37,672 nucleotides of DNA from a virus. Each line of letters opens with the position of its first letter. Within the stretch, counting starts at the first letter, position 1. This document shows positions 1,832-17,580 of this stretch, in pieces. The translations under genes and the position numbers were made by a program. The notes beneath the pieces were generated by a model. It did no database searches, had not been told where the DNA came from, and was given only the letters and a program-made list of their open reading frames with translations. The DNA is taken from positions 1 through 37,672 of the IMG/VR virus record IMGVR_UViG_3300038441_000938. One strand, written 5' to 3'.

Positions 1832-3544
1832 TTACTTCAAGTCTATTTGCTTTGTAAAGCCAGGATCTTCGTCCGCCGTTTCGGGTCGGAATTGGGTTGC
1901 GAGTTTGATACGACGCCGCCATTTGCGTTCAGTCGATGCGATGGAGTAGCGCAACGAGTCGCAGTTGTGGACGAGTACGCCGTTCGCGTAATACTCAGGC
2001 TGTTCGAATACTGTCAGGTTGTAGACGGGTTCGAGACCTTTGACCCAATCGACACTGACGACGGCGCTCGTACCAGTCGCCTGCTGAATGACGTCGCCGG
2101 GGTGGAGTTCCTCGATCGGCGTGAAGCCTTCGCCGTCGACGAACACCGGATGATTCGCAGTCCCAAGCAATGTGGTGCCGTCGGCCAGGAGCAGCGCACG
2201 TGGAGCGTGAACCCCTGTGCATCCAGCGTCGAGGACTGGTCGATACCCGAACCGGGTCAACACCAGCGTTCCGGGTTCGATCGTTTCGATTGGCTGCGGC
2301 CCGTCGACGGTTTCGACCAGCGTGCCGGCCACAAAACAGCCGTGGTCATTCACCTTGACCGGCGCATCCTTGCCTTCTTCTGTCGCTTTCGTATCCCACA
2401 CATATCCGGGGATTTCTTTCAACAGTTCAGGGCATCGGTCGCTGATCTTCAGTTTTTCGATAGAGAACAGTGCGGAGGTGGTTCGAATCCCGTACAGCAC
2501 TTCGTTGTAGGCGGGTACCGTGCGTTGCCCGTCCTGCTTCAACTGGACTCGGAAGTCCGCGGCGGCAGGGTCAACAATAACGGGGCAGGTGATGCGTGGC
2601 GGGCTGTCCGGGTCTTCGCGCGGATGATGGGCGGTAGCCATCCAGCCCCGTAAGCCTTGCGAGAGTTGGACGTTGGTTTTGCGGGCCTCTTTGTTCGAGG
2701 GCGCATACCGCCATTCGTCGACCGCATACAGCACGTTGTCGACACCTAAACCGAGCATGATCGCATGGGTGGGGTTGGTGGTGCCGTGGTCGACGGCGAT
2801 CCCGATATAGCATTGCAGGTCGGGCAGTTCGCCCCATGGCACCACGTGGCGGTCGGGGTCGAAGCAGTCGTAGACGGCGCCGTCGGCGGCGACCCACAAT
2901 CCGTTGATGTTGCGCAGGTAGAACAGTCCGGAGAATTCGGCTTTGATCGCGGCGACATAGTCGGGGTCGAGTGACGGGTTGTCGTCGAGCATGAACGACC
3001 AGGCCCGCAAGTCCAGTTCGTGCTGTCGGTCGATGTAGTTGACCTTCAGGAAGTGGGCTGGATTGTCGGGGTTGGTGGTTGCCAGGCAGCGTGCGCCGGG
3101 GACGGAGAGGCGCGCGAGGAGCTGGGTCCAGAAGTTTTCTGGGAGCAGTGTGGCTTCGTCCACCAGCGCGAGGCAGGCGGTCATGCCGCGGAGTTTGCCT
3201 TCTGCGCGGACGTCGTTGGCGCCGATCAGGTGGATGGTGCGGCCGAGGATGATCGCGGTGGAGGATCCGCGTGTGTGGTGGACTTCGTTCGACCATATGC
3301 CGAATACGGCTTGGTCTTGCATGGGCTCGATGATGTTGCGTTCGATCGTCTGCAAGGTTCGGCCGACGATGATGATGAGCCCGGATTCGGGGGCGCGTAG
3401 TACCGCGTCGTAGAAGGCGAGGATGCTGGCGATGGTTTTGCCTGATCGCACCGCGCCGGAGAGTATGGAGACTCGTGCGCGGCGGGCTTCGACGATGGAA
3501 GCGATTTGTTTGCGGGACAGGGGAAGTGTGTCCAGCAGGCTCAC
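1832..3544 (-). CDS. terL: Terminase large subunit with an in-frame intein
   Basis: This is the ATP-driven DNA packaging motor and nuclease. The ATPase half shows a Walker A-like GAVRSGKT (residues 30-37), a Walker B LALVDE (125-130) and a TTNPDN motif near 158. The nuclease half shows IAVDHG (D252), VIVDPAAADF (D325) and CDSLRY (D529), three acidic positions expected for the RNase H-like fold. A 125-residue mini-intein (residues 403-527) interrupts the third nuclease motif. The spliced protein would be 445 aa, normal for actinophage TerL. The GTG start at 3544 overlaps the small-subunit stop as GTGA. Confidence 0.93.
   Translation of the reverse strand: MSLLDTLPLSRKQIASIVEARRARVSILSGAVRSGKTIASILAFYDAVLRAPESGLIIIVGRTLQTIERNIIEPMQDQAVFGIWSNEVHHTRGSSTAIILGRTIHLIGANDVRAEGKLRGMTACLALVDEATLLPENFWTQLLARLSVPGARCLATTNPDNPAHFLKVNYIDRQHELDLRAWSFMLDDNPSLDPDYVAAIKAEFSGLFYLRNINGLWVAADGAVYDCFDPDRHVVPWGELPDLQCYIGIAVDHGTTNPTHAIMLGLGVDNVLYAVDEWRYAPSNKEARKTNVQLSQGLRGWMATAHHPREDPDSPPRITCPVIVDPAAADFRVQLKQDGQRTVPAYNEVLYGIRTTSALFSIEKLKISDRCPELLKEIPGYVWDTKATEEGKDAPVKVNDHGCFVAGTLVETVDGPQPIETIEPGTLVLTRFGYRPVLDAGCTGVHAPRALLLADGTTLLGTANHPVFVDGEGFTPIEELHPGDVIQQATGTSAVVSVDWVKGLEPVYNLTVFEQPEYYANGVLVHNCDSLRYSIASTERKWRRRIKLATQFRPETADEDPGFTKQIDLK
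1964..2338 (-). other. Mini-intein in TerL (125 aa)
   Basis: The intein begins Cys (CFVAGTLVET, block A), has block B GTANHPVFV, then VYNLTVFE and YYANGVLVHN (blocks F/G), and is followed by Cys+1 of the host protein. N-terminal Cys, block B N-x-x-H-type motif, terminal His-Asn and Cys+1 are the residues of a standard class 1 intein. No LAGLIDADG or HNH motif is present, so it is a splicing-only mini-intein. It sits one residue before the presumed nuclease Asp, so unspliced TerL should lack nuclease activity. Confidence 0.92.
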
Positions 3545-8296: not shown

Positions 8297-8723
8297 GAGA
8301 ACTCCTGGCAGAGTGGGAATGAGAACCGCCCGCCCCTCCCTGATGCGGGAGTGGACGAGCGGCCATGTAGAGGACCGGCCCTGGACTGCCGAAGCGAGCG
8401 GAACCGGTCGTGAAACCCCGAAGGGTTAAGCCCGCCGCCAGAGGCAGAGGGTGGTATGCCTGCGCGACGGGCAGAGGCTTACGGCAGATACCTGCCGCGA
8501 AGTGCGCGTGCCCGCCAGGGGGTGGATCAGGAGATTCGCGACTCTCCAAGGTTCCCAACCTCGCGCAATGCGGCCCTGGATTCAGTTCCGCCCGTGGTTG
8601 CGCTATCCAACTCGTGAAGTCGAAGCCGTTTTGCTGACGAAGCTCGGCCAACTCCGGGCACTGTGCATTTCTGCTGGCGGTGATCAAATCCGCCTTTGTA
8701 CGGATCGTTGCCCTATCCGCTCG
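8297..8723 (-). ncRNA. Gene-free structured stretch downstream of the tRNA (candidate RNA)
   Basis: No convincing gene is seen. Perfect hairpins are frequent: AACCC-TTCG-GGGTT (cUUCGg on the minus strand, 8418-8431), CGGCAG-GTAT-CTGCCG near 8481-8496 nested inside CGGGCA/TGCCCG, AGGTT-GGG-AACCT near 8548, GGCGG/CCGCC near 8682 and GACCGG/CCGGTC near 8373-8408. This suggests a structured transcript, perhaps continuous with 8800-9110. Strand is assumed from the tRNAs. Confidence 0.4.
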
Positions 8724-8799
8724 TTGCAGTGGTCGGATTCGAACCGACGACCTGCGGATTATGAGCCCGCTGCGCTAGACCGAGCTGCGCCACACTGCG
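8724..8799 (-). tRNA. tRNA-Met(CAT), initiator-like
   Basis: Complete cloverleaf of 76 nt. Acceptor CGCAGTG pairs with CACTGC, leaving position 1 C opposite 72 A, the mismatch typical of bacterial initiator tRNA. The D-stem is GCGC/GCGC, the anticodon arm is GCGGG-CTCATAA-TCCGC, the variable loop is AGGTC and the T-arm is GTCGG-TTCGAAT-CCGAC. A73 is followed by CGA, so CCA is not encoded. The anticodon stem is not the full GGG/CCC of initiators (31-39 is G-U) and 11-24 is C-G, so it mixes initiator and elongator traits. Confidence 0.9.
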
Positions 8800-9110
8800 A
8801 TGGAGCCGTTTGATAGCGGAGATGGCTCAACTCCGTCAGGCGCTATCGCGAAATCGCACCCTTCCCCATGTCGAGGGTCAGCCGCCAGTTTTTTTCGGGA
8901 GACACCGGAAACTCCCGCTTGTGAGGCAGGCACCGAACGGCGAACTCCGTTCGGCCACCTGCCCTGTAGTCGCCCCGCAAACGGGACTGGTGAGCTTTGA
9001 CCTCACTGCTCAGCGATCTTGTCGCTGCAACACTTTCGCGCCCCAGCGGCCTCGCCATCCGACGACTTTCCGTTGAGGCACTTCCAACCCCTCCGCGAAG
9101 AGGCGGCAAG
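8800..9110 (-). ncRNA. Hairpin-dense gene-free stretch upstream of the tRNA (candidate structured RNA)
   Basis: Features on the minus strand: a 39-nt hairpin near 8919-8957 (GGCAGG/CCTGCC outside CCGAACGG/CCGTTCGG), CGGGAG/CTCCCG next to it followed by seven A, CAGCGA-CAAGA-TCGCTG near 9012-9028, CCCG-TTTG-CGGG near 8974, and GATAGCG/CGCTATC near 8813-8848. Open frames here (for example 8843-9109) have no recognisable protein character. The concentration of perfect stems next to tRNAs recalls large ornate phage RNAs; the exact ends and strand are unknown. Confidence 0.4.
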
Positions 9111-9305
9111 TTAGACGGTGGGGAGAGTTACTAGCTCTCCGTTCGGGGCATGAATCGTAAGTATGATTAGGCCCGAAGCTACGACCCGGCCGCTAGGCAT
9201 CGGTTTCCGCCCGCTAAGGCTTCCCCTCAGGCACTCGCCCGTCAGGATCCCGTAAGTCGCACACATTGCGTCCCGATTCGCGCAAGACGCACACTCTGTC
9301 ACCAC
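9111..9305 (-). CDS. Possible small Cys-rich protein (64 aa)
   Basis: Reading from GTG 9305 gives MVTECASCANRDAMCATYG, with CxxC-x7-C-x9-C spacing that could bind zinc, and a hydrophobic beta-like end. There is no clear ribosome site and the DNA overlaps strong hairpins (GGAGAG/CTCTCC at 9122-9140, TGCGTC/GACGCA near 9266-9290). It may equally be part of the structured RNA region. Confidence 0.3.
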   Translation of the reverse strand: MVTECASCANRDAMCATYGILTGECLRGSLSGRKPMPSGRVVASGLIILTIHAPNGELVTLPTV

Positions 9306-9309
9306 CAGC

Positions 9310-9332
9310 GCAACTAGCTAGGCTGCGCTTTG
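9310..9332 (-). other. Hairpin immediately after the tRNA-like gene
   Basis: AGCGCA and TGCGCT arms enclose a loop containing CTAGCTAG, starting directly after the discriminator base of the tRNA-like gene 9333-9403. It may be a processing signal or terminator without a U-tract. Confidence 0.4.
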
Positions 9333-9403
9333 CTCCCTGTCCACGAATCGAACGTGGGTACAGCCCTTTACGGGGGTTGCTCTAGCCACTGAGCCAACAG
9401 GGA
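9333..9403 (-). tRNA. tRNA-like gene, probable Tyr(GTA) reading, irregular anticodon loop
   Basis: Perfect 7-bp acceptor (TCCCTGT/ACAGGGA) with G73, D-stem GCTC/GAGC, T-arm CCACG-TTCGATT-CGTGG. The anticodon arm is one nucleotide short. The best fold AACCC-CCGTAAA-GGGCT leaves one A-C mismatch and places C at position 33, normally an invariant U, with GTA at 34-36. U1-A72 with G73 is unlike normal tRNA-Tyr. No CCA is encoded. Either a divergent or degenerating tRNA, or one altered in its loop. Confidence 0.65.
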
Positions 9404-9460
9404 TACCTTTTCATATGTCCTCAGGGGGAGGTGTTAACCCAACGAGTCCCGAGGCCCGCG

Positions 9461-9516
9461 CTCCAATGGACGGACTCGAACCGTTCTGCGCACCGACTGC
9501 GCCAAAGGAGGTTGGA
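9461..9516 (-). tRNA. Truncated tRNA-like element without an anticodon arm
   Basis: Its 3' half is a clear tRNA end: T-arm AACGG-TTCGAGT-CCGTC (4 of 5 pairs) and acceptor CATTGGA plus G73. The 5' TCCAA pairs with TTGGA. Between them is one hairpin only, GCGC-AGTCGGT-GCGC, whose loop (AG-GG-type) looks like a D-arm. No anticodon arm exists, giving 56 nt. It may be a deletion relic, a processed non-decoding RNA, or a tRNA 3' end kept as an attachment-site core. Confidence 0.5.
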
Positions 9517-9550
9517 TGGGCGCTTGCTACCACACTGCGTACCCGTCCCG

Positions 9551-9616
9551 CTCCCCTGCCGGAACTCGAATCCGGGCCTCCGCCGTCGCGGCGCTCTGCC
9601 GCCGAGCTTCAGGGGA
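9551..9616 (-). tRNA. tRNA-like gene with a 4-bp, 4-nt anticodon hairpin
   Basis: Perfect acceptor (TCCCCTG/CAGGGGA, G73), D-stem GCTC/GAGC and perfect T-arm CCGGA-TTCGAGT-TCCGG give a convincing tRNA body. The acceptor resembles tRNA-Asn (U1-A72, G73). The anticodon arm is only CCGC-GACG-GCGG, 12 nt against the usual 17, so no 7-nt loop and no usable anticodon is present. Total 66 nt. Confidence 0.6.
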
Positions 9617-9636
9617 ACTACTTCATTTCTTCAGGC

Positions 9637-9683
9637 GCCGTAGAGGGCAGCCCACCCGTGAGGATGGCGGAAGGCTCTACGGC
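9637..9683. other. Two-tier hairpin (47 nt)
   Basis: Outer arms GCCGTAGAG and CTCTACGGC pair perfectly over 9 bp, and inner arms CCACCC and GGATGG pair over 6 bp (one G-U). On the + strand the apical loop is GTGA, a GNRA tetraloop; on the minus strand it is TCAC. It is not a tRNA. It could be the end of a structured RNA or a terminator of the tRNA cluster. Confidence 0.5.
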
Positions 9684-9787
9684 TACAGCTAGACATCACA
9701 TTCCCGGGCGCGATGTCCGCGAGGCTGAAAGTTGGTCGATCTTCGGACACAACTAGCGCACCCCCATCAGACCATGGCAGTTCTCGA

Positions 9788-9832
9788 TTGTCTAGCACTC
9801 TCTAGCGCTATCTAGTCTATTTCCAATATAAT
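9788..9832 (+). promoter_or_regulatory. Promoter and TCTAG direct-repeat operator of the XRE regulator
   Basis: A consensus TATAAT (-10) lies at 9827-9832. TCTAG is repeated at 9791, 9801 and 9811, exactly 10 bp apart and on one DNA face, and overlaps TAGCGCTA, an 8-bp palindrome (9803-9810). TTGTCT occurs at 9788. No good -35 matches the TATAAT, so regulation through the repeats, perhaps by the downstream protein itself, is likely (inference). Confidence 0.55.
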
Positions 9833-9908
9833 TGCCATTCCGACCTGCTGGAATTTTGCAATTGTGAAATGGGTCACTCATCTGAAAATCGGAAGCCAGA
9901 ATGACTCC

Positions 9909-10175
9909 ATGACCGAAGACGCTGACACCGCTGCCTATCGGGAAGCCCTCGCGGGCGAACTCCGTGCAGCCCGCGCCCGCAAGGACATCACGCAAGCCGA
10001 TCTCGCTCGCCGAACTGGCTACGTCCCTAATACGATTAGCCGCCTCGAACAGGGCCTCAGATCCCCGACCGTCCACCAACTGCGCCGCATCGCCAAAGCT
10101 CTCGACGCTGATGCGGGCAAGATGGCGGACGCTGCCTATGATGCCGTTCACGCAGACCAGTCAGGCTCCGGGTAG
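9909..10175 (+). CDS. XRE-family HTH regulator (88 aa)
   Basis: Residues 15-68 form a Cro/CI-type HTH: ELRAARARKDITQADLARRTG, then YVPNTISRLEQGLRSPTVHQLRRIAKAL, with the sequence-reading helix NTISRLEQG. Small XRE proteins act as phage repressors, Cro-like factors or excise controllers. It is rightward while both flanks are leftward, and its promoter region holds repeated TCTAG sites. ATG 9909 is chosen because the longer in-frame reading overlaps the leader. Its 3' end overlaps the next leftward gene by 28 bp. Confidence 0.82.
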   Translation: MTEDADTAAYREALAGELRAARARKDITQADLARRTGYVPNTISRLEQGLRSPTVHQLRRIAKALDADAGKMADAAYDAVHADQSGSG

Positions 10176-10462
10176 TCCTCGATGCCCGCGTTCGGATCCT
10201 CCAGCGGCACGTAAGGCTCGGCCAATGCGAGCGTCACGCCCGAGAGCCGACAGAACTCTTCCAGCTCGATAAACCCGTTGCGAGGATCACCGAACTTGAA
10301 TTCGATGACCAGCTTCGCGAACCCGCCAAGTCGAGGCACCTGCAATACTCGGCCCGTCCCGCGTCGATACTTCAACCGGTAGTAGTTGCCGTCCTCGTCC
10401 CATCCGTTCCATGCGGCGGGGCACAAGTAGGACGTGTGCTCGACCTTGGCGAGAGTGCTCAC
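10148..10462 (-). CDS. Hypothetical protein (104 aa)
   Basis: MSTLAKVEHTSYLCPAAWNG with a Trp/Tyr-rich N-terminal half and an acidic end (EDYPEPDWSA). Last gene of the four-gene leftward operon, convergent with the XRE regulator. Confidence 0.65.
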   Translation of the reverse strand: MSTLAKVEHTSYLCPAAWNGWDEDGNYYRLKYRRGTGRVLQVPRLGGFAKLVIEFKFGDPRNGFIELEEFCRLSGVTLALAEPYVPLEDPNAGIEDYPEPDWSA

Positions 10463-15756: not shown

Positions 15757-17580
15757 CTACCTGAACTCGGACATGAGGCCCGTGTTTTCCCACCACGCCA
15801 GATAGAACGTCGTCAACCAGCGGTCGATAGCGTCATAATCGGGCCGCTCGGGCAGGTCCGCGGTCTTCGCCAACACATTCAACTGGTCGAGCAGATCATC
15901 GGCGCGCGCCAACGCCTCCTCTTTCGTGTGCTCGCCGCGCCGCAATTCCCGCAACCATGTCCGATCAGGCTCGGGAATGGGCAGGGTGATGCGCCCGGTT
16001 GTGAGCACTTCGACGCCTTGCAAGCCGAGCCGAACCATGTGATAAGCGAATTTGGTGTTTCCGTGCATCGCAACATGCCCATTGCGGCGGGTTACCAGGG
16101 TCTCATTCGGCACGGTGAAGCAAACAATGGATCGGTTTTCGATATCGACACTCTTTACATCCCGGCCGCGAAACGGCGCGAACGGCGTATCGCCAGCATC
16201 GTGAATGAGCACCTGATACATGCCCGTGTTCCCATCGTGCACGTACGGCCCGCGAACGTTCGCGCGACGCCCACGCATGACAGCGATCGCCTGCACCTGC
16301 CCGGCCAACTCCCACGAAGTGGTGTAGTAGACCCAGCCTCCCGTTCGATGCGGAGTGCCATCGCCACTGAGCAGCGCATCCAACAGGACGTCTATCTGGC
16401 GAGCCGAGAGGTTGAGCGCCCAATCTGGAAGCCGCCGAGTCTCGCTGCGATCTCCACACGACTTCACGATCTCATCGACGGTCGCACGATGCGAGAACGT
16501 CCAAATCGTGCCTGGGCGCCGAGTCTCGTCACGCGCCTTGAATCGGTAGGTCCGGAACGCGTACTCCGTTGCAGCGAGAACCATCGTCTCGTGCAGGCGT
16601 CCACCGTCCACCTGGCATATCTGCAAGTTGGCGACAGTGCCGTCCTTACGCCGCTTCCCGAAAGACCCCTCGGACACGAACGCGCCAATCAACGCCAAGT
16701 GCGCATCCGAGACAGGGATCTCCTCATCCCGAGGCGTGGCAACAACCTGCTGATACCAGTCAAGTCGGGTCACATCCGAAGCGGGACGGAATCCCCAAGC
16801 GGCGGTCGCAGGGTTGTAGGCCCGCGGGTTCACGCCGCATGAACCGCGCCGCATCTTCGACACTCGCATACGATGATTCGGCGTCACCGCCCACTCGCTG
16901 TAGCGCGTCTTGCAGGTGAGGATCGGCCCCGAGTAAGGCTTTGACACGCGCTCGATGAAACGCTGAAACTCGACTTGGCCTGTGTCCTGGTTGATTGTGG
17001 CGAGTTCGTCGCCGTCGTCAATCTGGTCGTAGAGGAGCCACCCGCGACGGGTCAGAAACTCGGTGTCATCGAGGTAGCAATCAAACCCATGTTGCTCGAC
17101 CAATTCGGGCCGATTCGTGTGCTTCTTCGACTTCAACCCCAACATCTGATCCCGCTGCGACACCAGATAGCCCGCGAACCTGTCCGCTACTTGGCGCGAC
17201 AGGAACCGTTCGGGATGGGCTTGCAGATCGGCGCCGAACGCGTCGCAAATCACCAGCTCGTCCGCTGGAATGAACATGAGCAGCAGGATTGTCGGGTTAC
17301 CCTGCGCGGCGAGGCGAGCCCATTTCCGCAGGCTGTAGATGTTGAGGTCGAGATCGCCTGCGCCAGAACGGACACCTTCGGGTTGGGTGCGGAAAATGTA
17401 CTGCTCGAACTGGGCGTTGCCGATGACGTAGGCGGGCGGTTCCAGACAGACGCCCATTTCGTCGCGATCATCATCGCCCGTGGTGACGCCGTGCAGGCCC
17501 GAGCCGACTTGGCCGAGGAGGATGGTGTTGTCCTTGGCGATCCGCTCGAATTCCGCGGTGCTGTGCGGGTTCACGCTCAT
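15757..17580 (-). CDS. Nucleotidyltransferase (COG3541-like) interrupted by a LAGLIDADG intein
   Basis: The N-extein has the polymerase-beta-type motif GSGLHGVTTGDDDRDEMG (Gly-Ser, then D38-x-D40). The C-extein continues TKFAYHMVRLGLQGVEVLTT and GRITLP, matching predicted nucleotidyltransferases of large phages. Removing residues 168-508 leaves 266 aa, the normal size, with the joint GFD|TKFAYH. The reaction, transfer of a nucleotide to an unknown acceptor, is not established for this family. GTG or ATG choice: ATG 17580. Confidence 0.85.
   Translation of the reverse strand: MSVNPHSTAEFERIAKDNTILLGQVGSGLHGVTTGDDDRDEMGVCLEPPAYVIGNAQFEQYIFRTQPEGVRSGAGDLDLNIYSLRKWARLAAQGNPTILLLMFIPADELVICDAFGADLQAHPERFLSRQVADRFAGYLVSQRDQMLGLKSKKHTNRPELVEQHGFDCYLDDTEFLTRRGWLLYDQIDDGDELATINQDTGQVEFQRFIERVSKPYSGPILTCKTRYSEWAVTPNHRMRVSKMRRGSCGVNPRAYNPATAAWGFRPASDVTRLDWYQQVVATPRDEEIPVSDAHLALIGAFVSEGSFGKRRKDGTVANLQICQVDGGRLHETMVLAATEYAFRTYRFKARDETRRPGTIWTFSHRATVDEIVKSCGDRSETRRLPDWALNLSARQIDVLLDALLSGDGTPHRTGGWVYYTTSWELAGQVQAIAVMRGRRANVRGPYVHDGNTGMYQVLIHDAGDTPFAPFRGRDVKSVDIENRSIVCFTVPNETLVTRRNGHVAMHGNTKFAYHMVRLGLQGVEVLTTGRITLPIPEPDRTWLRELRRGEHTKEEALARADDLLDQLNVLAKTADLPERPDYDAIDRWLTTFYLAWWENTGLMSEFR
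16057..17079 (-). other. Intein with LAGLIDADG homing endonuclease (341 aa)
   Basis: It begins CYLDDTEFLTRRGW (Cys1), block B is SEWAVTPNHRM, and the end is VCFTVPNETLVTR then AMHGN, followed by Thr+1. Two LAGLIDADG-type helices are seen: ALIGAFVSEGS and IDVLLDALLSGDG, each with an acidic residue for metal binding. The penultimate residue is Gly (HGN) rather than His. A Trp in block B and a Cys in block F also occur in class 3 inteins, but Cys1 points to class 1. The endonuclease would cleave intein-less alleles. Confidence 0.9.

What the first reader, a model, noticed from the sequence alone, without database searches (positions are those of the whole stretch)
9333..9616. tRNA-like genes with shortened, abnormal or missing anticodon arms
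Three neighbours keep good acceptor and T-arms (TTCGATT or TTCGAGT loops, G73) but have defects in the anticodon arm only: 9333-9403 lacks one nucleotide and has C33, 9551-9616 has a 4-bp stem with a GACG loop, and 9461-9516 has no anticodon arm. Selective loss in one arm is not what random decay predicts. Anticodon-loop changes in mycobacteriophage tRNAs are known to evade host tRNA-cleaving toxins; non-decoding tRNA-like decoys, substrates for other enzymes, or an attachment-site relic are alternatives.
Basis: partly seen in the sequence, partly recalled or inferred. Interest (0 to 1): 0.82.

Follow-up and report, generated by a model that had tools for sequence, protein, structure and literature searches.

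The report
Phage RNA headed by tRNA-like module
In a family of viruses of Nocardia-like bacteria, a tRNA-like gene whose codon-reading arm is mostly damaged or rebuilt sits directly in front of a conserved folded RNA, which suggests that it no longer reads codons and instead helps to make or shield that RNA.

Summary
The third, 9461-9516, is within chance. The larger finding lies beside them: 9330-9117 encodes a structured RNA with no Rfam match; 21 of 40 pairs show two-sided changes (0/500 shuffles). I found 11 distinct copies, in Nocardia genomes, a Prescottella equi plasmid and virus contigs. In 11 of 11 a tRNA or TL ends with N73-C-A directly before the RNA. Acceptor and T stems stay paired while differing in sequence; the anticodon region runs from 17 to 42 nt in 10 parsed; 7 of 11 get no Rfam tRNA hit; P. 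equi has an ordinary tRNA-Lys. Best reading: TLs are non-decoding processing or capping modules of the RNA behind them, laid out like herpesvirus TMERs. Toxin evasion is not supported; plain decay fits poorly but is not excluded. Against: three aberrant TLs lie off the slot, some TLs do not fold as cloverleaves alone, and no transcript data exist.

The parts
9331..9403 (-). tRNA-like (TL) flush with the structured RNA: acceptor, D arm, anticodon-type arm without nt 26 and with C33, T arm, G73 (9333), then CA (9332-9331)
   Evidence: ARAGORN (drawn); stem and chance tests; junction shared by 11 of 11 loci
9117..9330 (-). structured RNA core, 214 nt; three hairpin loops (helices 1, 6, 7) each carry YAGC
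   Evidence: held-out match of 140.5 bits to model R1, which covers 9142-9330; covariation; last hairpin and extent; loops
9551..9616 (-). second tRNA-like (TL-A) with 12-nt mini anticodon arm CCGC-GACG-GCGG, like the TL that is flush with the core in Nocardia aurea; in the window it is not flush
9418..9455 (-). hairpin GCCTCGGGAC...CCTGAGGAC that also precedes the TL in N. aurea; similar hairpins elsewhere in related loci by eye
   Evidence: alignment; sequences
9037..9107 (-). conserved module 'C', also found without a detected tRNA in L041, L043 and L044
   Evidence: blastn 78-93% over 28-72 nt
8924..9030 (-). conserved module 'D' before tRNA-Met, similar in L034, L040 and (shorter) L042
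8723..8799 (-). ordinary tRNA-Met(CAT) at the 3' end of the RNA island
   Evidence: ARAGORN; Rfam 60.6 bits

Best explanation
The flush tRNA-like is a non-decoding 5' module of a phage structured RNA. Shown by sequence: a constant slot, N73-C-A directly before the RNA; acceptor and T stems kept while their sequences differ; an anticodon arm that differs in length and form; a conserved, covarying RNA behind it; another tRNA or tRNA-like further downstream in the loci examined (5 nt after the core in P. equi). Inferred: host RNase P and RNase Z, which read the acceptor/T-arm elbow and not the anticodon (recalled), cut the transcript so that the TL sets (or, if left on, caps) the 5' end of the RNA, and the next tRNA sets a 3' boundary. 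Freed from decoding, the anticodon arm was shortened, rebuilt or replaced. The RNA's own job is unknown; its three YAGC hairpin loops look like repeated binding sites, so a sponge or scaffold is my guess. TL-A in the window would be a displaced or duplicated copy of the type still flush in N. aurea.
For: 11 of 11 distinct core copies have a tRNA/TL ending N-C-A directly before AAGC (10) or AGGC (1); acceptors 7/7 in 10 and 6/7 in 1, T-stems 5/5 in 11. In the 10 parsed, acceptor pairs differ at 6 of 7 positions and one of 70 cells is unpaired; anticodon regions are 17, 20, 21, 21, 23, 24, 24, 26, 39, 42 nt. L034, L035, L037 and L092 have almost the same acceptor and T-stem but regions of 39, 42, 20 and 26 nt. 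Rfam tRNA model: 4 of 11 flush genes reach gathering, 7 of 11 are not listed at E<=5; 31 other tRNA hits in the same loci all score 39 bits or more, and 7 further genes match the tRNA-Sec model below its cut-off. The core is a real RNA: 95.7% of 439 cells paired, 21 of 40 pairs changed on both sides, 0/500 shuffles, slid controls at most 6; six held-out copies score 90-185 bits. Of 150 Nocardia genomes 7 score 135 bits or more (5 of them in the model), the next 23.8. No flush gene encodes CCA, which suits RNase Z (recalled). Window and N. aurea cores are 91% identical yet have unrelated flush TLs: the slot was refilled.
Against: No transcript, cleavage or charging data. P. equi has a normal tRNA-Lys and L036, L038, L039 near-normal genes in the slot, so decoding may persist in some. 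Aberrant genes are not confined to the slot: three uncalled ones lie off it (TL-A, one upstream in L039, one downstream of the core in L088). Folded alone, L036, L039 and L092 do not give a plain cloverleaf as minimum-energy structure, and none of 12 sequences beats its shuffles by more than z -2.41. In dense arrays (L037, L038) adjacency to a tRNA says less. No sigma-70-like promoter or terminator near the island. Relaxed constraint alone also predicts variable anticodon arms.
Confidence: 0.53

Rival explanations
1. The TLs are decoys or uncleavable mimics aimed at host tRNA-targeting defences: they keep the elbow and acceptor and vary the anticodon arm under an arms race; the island is a set of RNA mimics.
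For: Anticodon arms differ most, even among similar TLs; 4 of 9 aberrant or near-normal arms fold better than shuffles at p<0.05 (combined p 3e-4). Related loci hold RNAs resembling defence-linked RNAs: abiF RNA at gathering score in L028 (37.7 bits against 37); below cut-off, abiF in L023 and L024 and DUF3800-IV in L020. The window encodes an RlaP-type nucleotidyltransferase. Phage tRNAs counter tRNA-cutting defences (PMC10264068, passages; PMC11555353, start of abstract in listing). Aberrant TLs off the slot fit this better than the cis model.
Against: Does not explain the exact junction with one RNA in 11 of 11 loci. No anticodon-nuclease target is recognisable in 17-nt or 42-nt regions. 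No defence partner was identified; PADLOC gave nothing for the three neighbours tested.
Confidence: 0.19
2. Degenerate relics: captured tRNA genes that lost decoding function and drift, with stems kept because the loss is recent.
For: Gradient from intact (P. equi) through near-normal (L036, L038, L039) to aberrant; TL-A has AA at positions 8-9 and lies off the slot; 9461-9516 is decayed or chance; weak single-sequence folds.
Against: Acceptor and T stems intact, with differing but paired sequences, in all 11 flush copies, while one arm changes; slot filled in 11 of 11 although cores are as little as 58% identical.
Confidence: 0.17
3. Decoding tRNAs with unusual loops that resist host anticodon nucleases, as proposed for mycobacteriophage tRNAs.
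For: C33 in the window's GTA gene; TTCAAAC loops with U33 in L038 and L039; tRNA-Lys in P. equi.
Against: U33 in 39 of 39 other ARAGORN tRNAs of these loci but in 5 of 9 called flush genes, 2 of 11 not called (the control set is itself chosen by ARAGORN); 4- to 6-nt loops (L033, L092, L037) and long rebuilt arms (L034, L035) are not ordinary reading heads; the 'Tyr' lacks the length of the other Tyr genes.
Confidence: 0.06
4. Attachment-site relics of integration next to tRNA 3' ends.
For: The junction lies at a tRNA 3' end, a common integration site (recalled).
Against: The conserved part is the downstream RNA with covarying helices, and the tRNA ends differ between loci; several carriers are contigs of 85-94 kb. 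I did not search for integrases or repeats.
Confidence: 0.03

Closest known systems
GOLLD and ROOL RNAs of phages and prophages
   Same: Large structured RNAs of unknown function in phages near tRNA islands; a pseudo-tRNA is predicted inside GOLLD of M. aubagnense and tRNAs are sometimes in its linker (PMC6582537, PMC12286853: passages).
   Different: No GOLLD or ROOL row among Rfam matches at E<=5 in 11 loci; core 212-218 nt, not over 400-800; here a tRNA or TL is flush at the 5' end in every copy.
TMERs of murine gammaherpesvirus 68
   Same: Viral RNA made of a 5' tRNA-like element followed by hairpins, processed by tRNase Z (PMC4838037, passages).
   Different: Eukaryotic virus, Pol III, microRNA hairpins; no homology claimed; processing here is inferred only.
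MALAT1-mascRNA and plant tRNA-snoRNA dicistrons (recalled, no call)
   Same: tRNA-like structure used as RNase P/RNase Z processing signal for a neighbouring noncoding RNA; mascRNA has a poor anticodon arm.
   Different: Eukaryotic; in MALAT1 the tRNA-like lies 3' of the RNA.
Anticodon-nuclease-resistant mycobacteriophage tRNAs (PMC10264068, passages)
   Same: Actinobacterial phage tRNAs with unusual anticodon loops.
   Different: Those are loop mutations in decoding tRNAs; most flush genes here lack an ordinary anticodon loop.
tmRNA
   Same: tRNA-like domain joined to a longer structured RNA.
   Different: No tmRNA among ARAGORN calls; no G3-U70: pair 3 is C-G or T-A in 10 of 10 parsed.

Membership tests
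GOLLD/ROOL RNA | match to the Rfam covariance model | tested here: not met
   No GOLLD or ROOL row at E<=5 in 11 loci or at E<=10 in window 8401-10200
GOLLD/ROOL RNA | phage-encoded, near tRNA genes | tested here: met
   Terminase and repressor-like protein in the window; tRNA-Met beside the RNA
GOLLD/ROOL RNA | length over 400-800 nt | tested here: not met
   Core 212-218 nt in 9 measured loci; in P. equi a tRNA starts 5 nt after it. In the other 8 measured, 131-377 nt more precede the next tRNA, so a longer RNA is not excluded there
GOLLD/ROOL RNA | oligomeric RNA cage | not testable with these tools
   needs cryo-EM
Functional elongator tRNA | 7-nt anticodon loop with U33 and a full stem | tested here: not met
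   Window: C33, no nt 26, A-C mismatch in the stem; TL-A: 4-bp stem, 4-nt loop. Met by P. equi tRNA-Lys
Functional elongator tRNA | Rfam tRNA gathering score | tested here: not met
   Window gene not listed; 4 of 11 flush genes reach it
Functional elongator tRNA | aminoacylation and use on ribosomes | not testable with these tools
   experiment
Viral tRNA-like + ncRNA fusion (TMER-like layout) | tRNA-like directly 5' of a structured RNA | tested here: met
   11 of 11 loci, one of them an ordinary tRNA
Viral tRNA-like + ncRNA fusion (TMER-like layout) | cleavage by RNase Z / tRNase Z | not testable with these tools
   experiment
Anticodon-nuclease-resistant phage tRNA | decoding tRNA with substitutions at the nuclease site | tested here: inconclusive
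   Most flush arms differ in length and form, not by substitution, but C33 in the window gene alone could be read so; nuclease sites were not compared
tmRNA | G3-U70 and a tmRNA call with tag frame | tested here: not met

The most novel reading that the evidence does not exclude
The island is an RNA-mimic counter-defence locus: the tRNA-like head baits or blocks tRNA-targeting effectors through an anticodon arm that is deliberately unreadable and fast-changing, the core behind it with three YAGC loops titrates a second host factor, and neighbouring modules copy RNA partners of defence systems (abiF RNA, DUF3800-linked RNA) that host toxins would normally need.
Probability: 0.1. Interest if true: 0.88.

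Novelty: new variant of a known kind. Interest (0 to 1): 0.62.

Why it matters
It offers a structured RNA family in actinobacterial phages that Rfam 15 does not match, with a fixed tRNA or tRNA-like at its 5' end, and turns 'odd phage tRNAs' into a testable model: some annotated phage tRNA genes may be RNA-processing or capping modules that no longer decode. That bears on how phage tRNA arrays are read (codon supply, nuclease evasion) and on why GOLLD and ROOL RNAs sit beside tRNAs. ARAGORN labels such flush genes Tyr, Ala, Ser, Leu or Ile, so annotation is affected at once.

Tried and rejected
Chance: rejected for 9333-9403 and 9551-9616, not rejected for 9461-9516. Known RNA family: GOLLD, ROOL and tmRNA considered; no support. 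Phage records of INPHARED: no match to the core by blastn (window stretch, where only the tRNA-Met part matched; L088 and L037 cores); the first 25 kb of the window had no megablast match. Genome pattern scan with an 18-letter pattern: 9 loci; only L008 (N. aurea) has the neighbouring helices on inspection, the other 8 do not and have no ARAGORN tRNA. Four scans of virus contigs gave two new copies, L088 and L092. A family-wide search of 401 genomes with R1 and one with the P. equi core by BLAST gave no strong copy beyond two known ones; both scored only a few candidates per genome and may miss some. Helix 4 of my structure is doubtful: 85.5% of cells and no two-sided change, while RNAalifold on the independent MAFFT alignment prefers a long-range pairing there; helix 9 is at 81.8% with no two-sided change. 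RNAalifold's 5' part of that alignment disagrees with my helices 1 and 2; I put this down to MAFFT shifting helix 2 by one column. Alignment A5 is fitted to the model and leans towards my structure. R1 hits of 24 bits and less were not followed or counted. Copies dropped as exact duplicates of a counted core: L001, L002, L018 (window); L008, L019, L051, L094 (L033); L003, L015, L017, L020, L031, L046 (L034); L021, L050, L095 (L035); L022, L045, L091 (L036); L023, L047 (L037); L024, L048, L089 (L038); L025, L049, L090 (L039); L005, L016, L093 (L004). L038 and L039 are 93% alike and not fully independent. Five of the 12 genomes hold only other modules (L040-L044) and no core. Module C as a DUF3800-linked RNA rests on one locus with a Pfam match below cut-off (16 bits against 21, E 0.021). 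PADLOC gave nothing for three neighbours; promoter/terminator scan empty.

Full report
Setting. The window is a 37.7-kb virus record, identical over 13.6 kb to an 85-kb IMG/VR contig. It encodes a phage terminase large subunit with a Hint (intein-type) domain, a repressor-like HTH protein, an exonuclease-like protein and an RlaP-type nucleotidyltransferase. DNA similarity in the same order extends over much of N. farcinica L003 and N. aurea L008, and at three places in a 92-kb P. equi plasmid annotated with a phage terminase.

Observation. On the minus strand ARAGORN calls tRNA-Met 8723-8799 and 'tRNA-Tyr' 9332-9403. A scan for a 5-bp T-arm with TTCRANY loop, a 7-bp acceptor and a D stem finds only 9334-9403 and 9552-9616; 40 random windows gave none. 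The third element has no good acceptor, does not fold as a cloverleaf, and its T-arm/D-hairpin pattern is expected 0.35 times per window. Two of three are sound.

The neighbour. The stretch between 'Tyr' and Met is similar in N. farcinica and P. equi. A motif scan of genomes gave N. aurea; a BLAST search of 150 Nocardia genomes gave 12 with a hit to some part, 7 of them with the core; virus-contig scans added L088 and L092. Their hosts are not stated by any search. Of the 11 distinct cores, 7 occur in virus contigs of IMG/VR (window, and by exact match or directly L004, L036, L038, L039, L088, L092). Record lengths are 85-94 kb for L035, L037, L038, L092, L004 and for the window's twin and that of L036; L033 and L034 lie in larger records. 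A covariance model of 191 positions, R1, built from 5 copies, recognises 6 held-out copies at 90 to 185 bits. Of 150 Nocardia genomes 7 score at least 135 bits (5 supplied the model) and the next 23.8. On the 11 copies, 58 to 93% identical, 95.7% of 439 cells form standard pairs, 21 of 40 pairs change on both sides, none of 500 shuffles reaches this, and sliding the partner gives at most 6 such pairs. The alignment was fitted to the model, which favours the structure. Three hairpin loops (helices 1, 6, 7) carry YAGC in 11 of 11 copies each.

The slot. In each of the 11 copies the bases before the RNA are a T-arm with 5/5 pairs, a 3' acceptor strand and N-C-A; the matching 5' acceptor strand lies upstream with 7/7 pairs in 10 and 6/7 in one. 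In the 10 copies parsed further, pair 3 is C-G or T-A, pair 5 C-G, T-A or T-G, pair 7 T-A, G-C, C-G or A-T with one C-A mismatch; D-stems have 4 pairs in 7, 3 in one and 2 in two; anticodon regions are 17 to 42 nt. L034 and L035 have one long arm; N. aurea has the same 12-nt mini-arm as TL-A of the window; L037 has 4 bp with a 6-nt loop; L092 6 bp with a 5-nt loop; L038 and L039 have, by eye, a C-A or A-C mismatch closing a TTCAAAC loop; P. equi has a normal tRNA-Lys. In L034, L035, L037 and L092 acceptor and T-stem are nearly the same and the anticodon region is not. Rfam's tRNA model reaches its cut-off in 4 of 11 flush genes and lists nothing for the other 7 at E<=5, against 31 other tRNA hits of 39 bits or more; 7 more genes are listed only under the tRNA-Sec model, below its cut-off. 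U33 is present in 39 of 39 other ARAGORN tRNAs and in 5 of 9 called flush genes, one of the five in an implausible 90-nt 'Ala'; 2 of 11 are not called (Fisher p 2.9e-5 for 5 of 11). That control is chosen by ARAGORN and so is biased towards normal tRNAs.

Against. A scan for tRNA-likes that ARAGORN missed found five: two flush genes (L033, L088) and three off the slot (TL-A, one upstream in L039, one downstream of the core in L088), so aberrant genes are not confined to the slot. Folded alone, L036, L039 and L092 do not give a plain cloverleaf, and no z is below -2.41 among 12 sequences. P. equi and, less clearly, L036, L038 and L039 keep near-normal genes. Nothing here shows transcription, and no promoter or terminator pattern was found. 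In the densest arrays adjacency means less; but in the window, L033, L034, L035 and L036 ARAGORN finds only one other tRNA in the 12-38 kb read.

Mechanism. The preserved parts are those that RNase P and RNase Z read (recalled); the changed part is the one needed to decode. The constant junction, the absence of an encoded CCA, and a tRNA further on (5 nt after the core in P. equi, 131 to 377 nt in eight others, in some filled with further conserved modules) fit tRNA punctuation. Whether the TL is cut off or stays on as a cap is open. Nine anticodon arms together fold better than shuffles (combined p 3e-4; individual p from 0 of 300 to 0.38, four below 0.05), so the arm may still be used structurally.

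Comparison. Closest in kind are GOLLD and ROOL, but the Rfam models do not match and the core is shorter. Closest in layout are the TMERs of MHV68. The toxin-evasion paper concerns loop mutations. Seven library searches listed no paper that I could recognise as describing this RNA; the library lacks most subscription journals, I read passages of four papers only, and the GOLLD survey of Morgado et al. 2020 was seen only as a reference.

Verdict. A phage RNA family unmatched in Rfam with a 5' tRNA or tRNA-like, a new variant of the known theme of phage RNAs beside tRNAs. Interest 0.62; higher if the mimic reading were shown.

Noticed in passing
L028 1355-1391 (-): abiF RNA (RF03085) at gathering score (37.7 bits, cut-off 37) 8 nt after tRNA-Met in a related Nocardia locus that also holds module D; below-cut-off abiF matches in L023 1-41 and L024 1206-1242. 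Whether L028 is a phage was not tested.
   Followed up: partly
L020 1359-1416 (+): Below-cut-off DUF3800-IV RNA match (48.5 bits, cut-off 60.7, E 4e-5) shortly upstream of the tRNA-like in N. farcinica.
   Followed up: partly
window 9037-9107 (-); L041 6596-6667 (-): Module C of the island recurs in other Nocardia loci without tRNAs; in L041 it lies beside a gene with a below-cut-off DUF3800 match.
   Followed up: partly
window 15757-17580 (-): RlaP-type nucleotidyltransferase (RNA-repair-linked family) of 607 aa, apparently interrupted by an insertion (two Pfam stretches; a thymidylate-synthase phage profile matches 164-241).
   Followed up: no
window 1832-3544 (-): Terminase large subunit with a Hint (intein-type) domain match at residues 403-443.
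   Followed up: no
L088 3130-3206 (-): tRNA-like shortly downstream of the core, not called by ARAGORN but 41 bits in Rfam, with a rebuilt arm around GCAA.
   Followed up: partly
L038 and L039, just upstream of the flush gene: By eye, a second tRNA-like in tandem with an odd anticodon loop and an acceptor that pairs only with a bulge; the scan framed the L039 one differently (6/7).
   Followed up: no
A5 columns 9-18, 125-130, 147-152: YAGC in all three hairpin loops of all 11 RNA copies (33 of 33), like repeated binding sites.
   Followed up: partly
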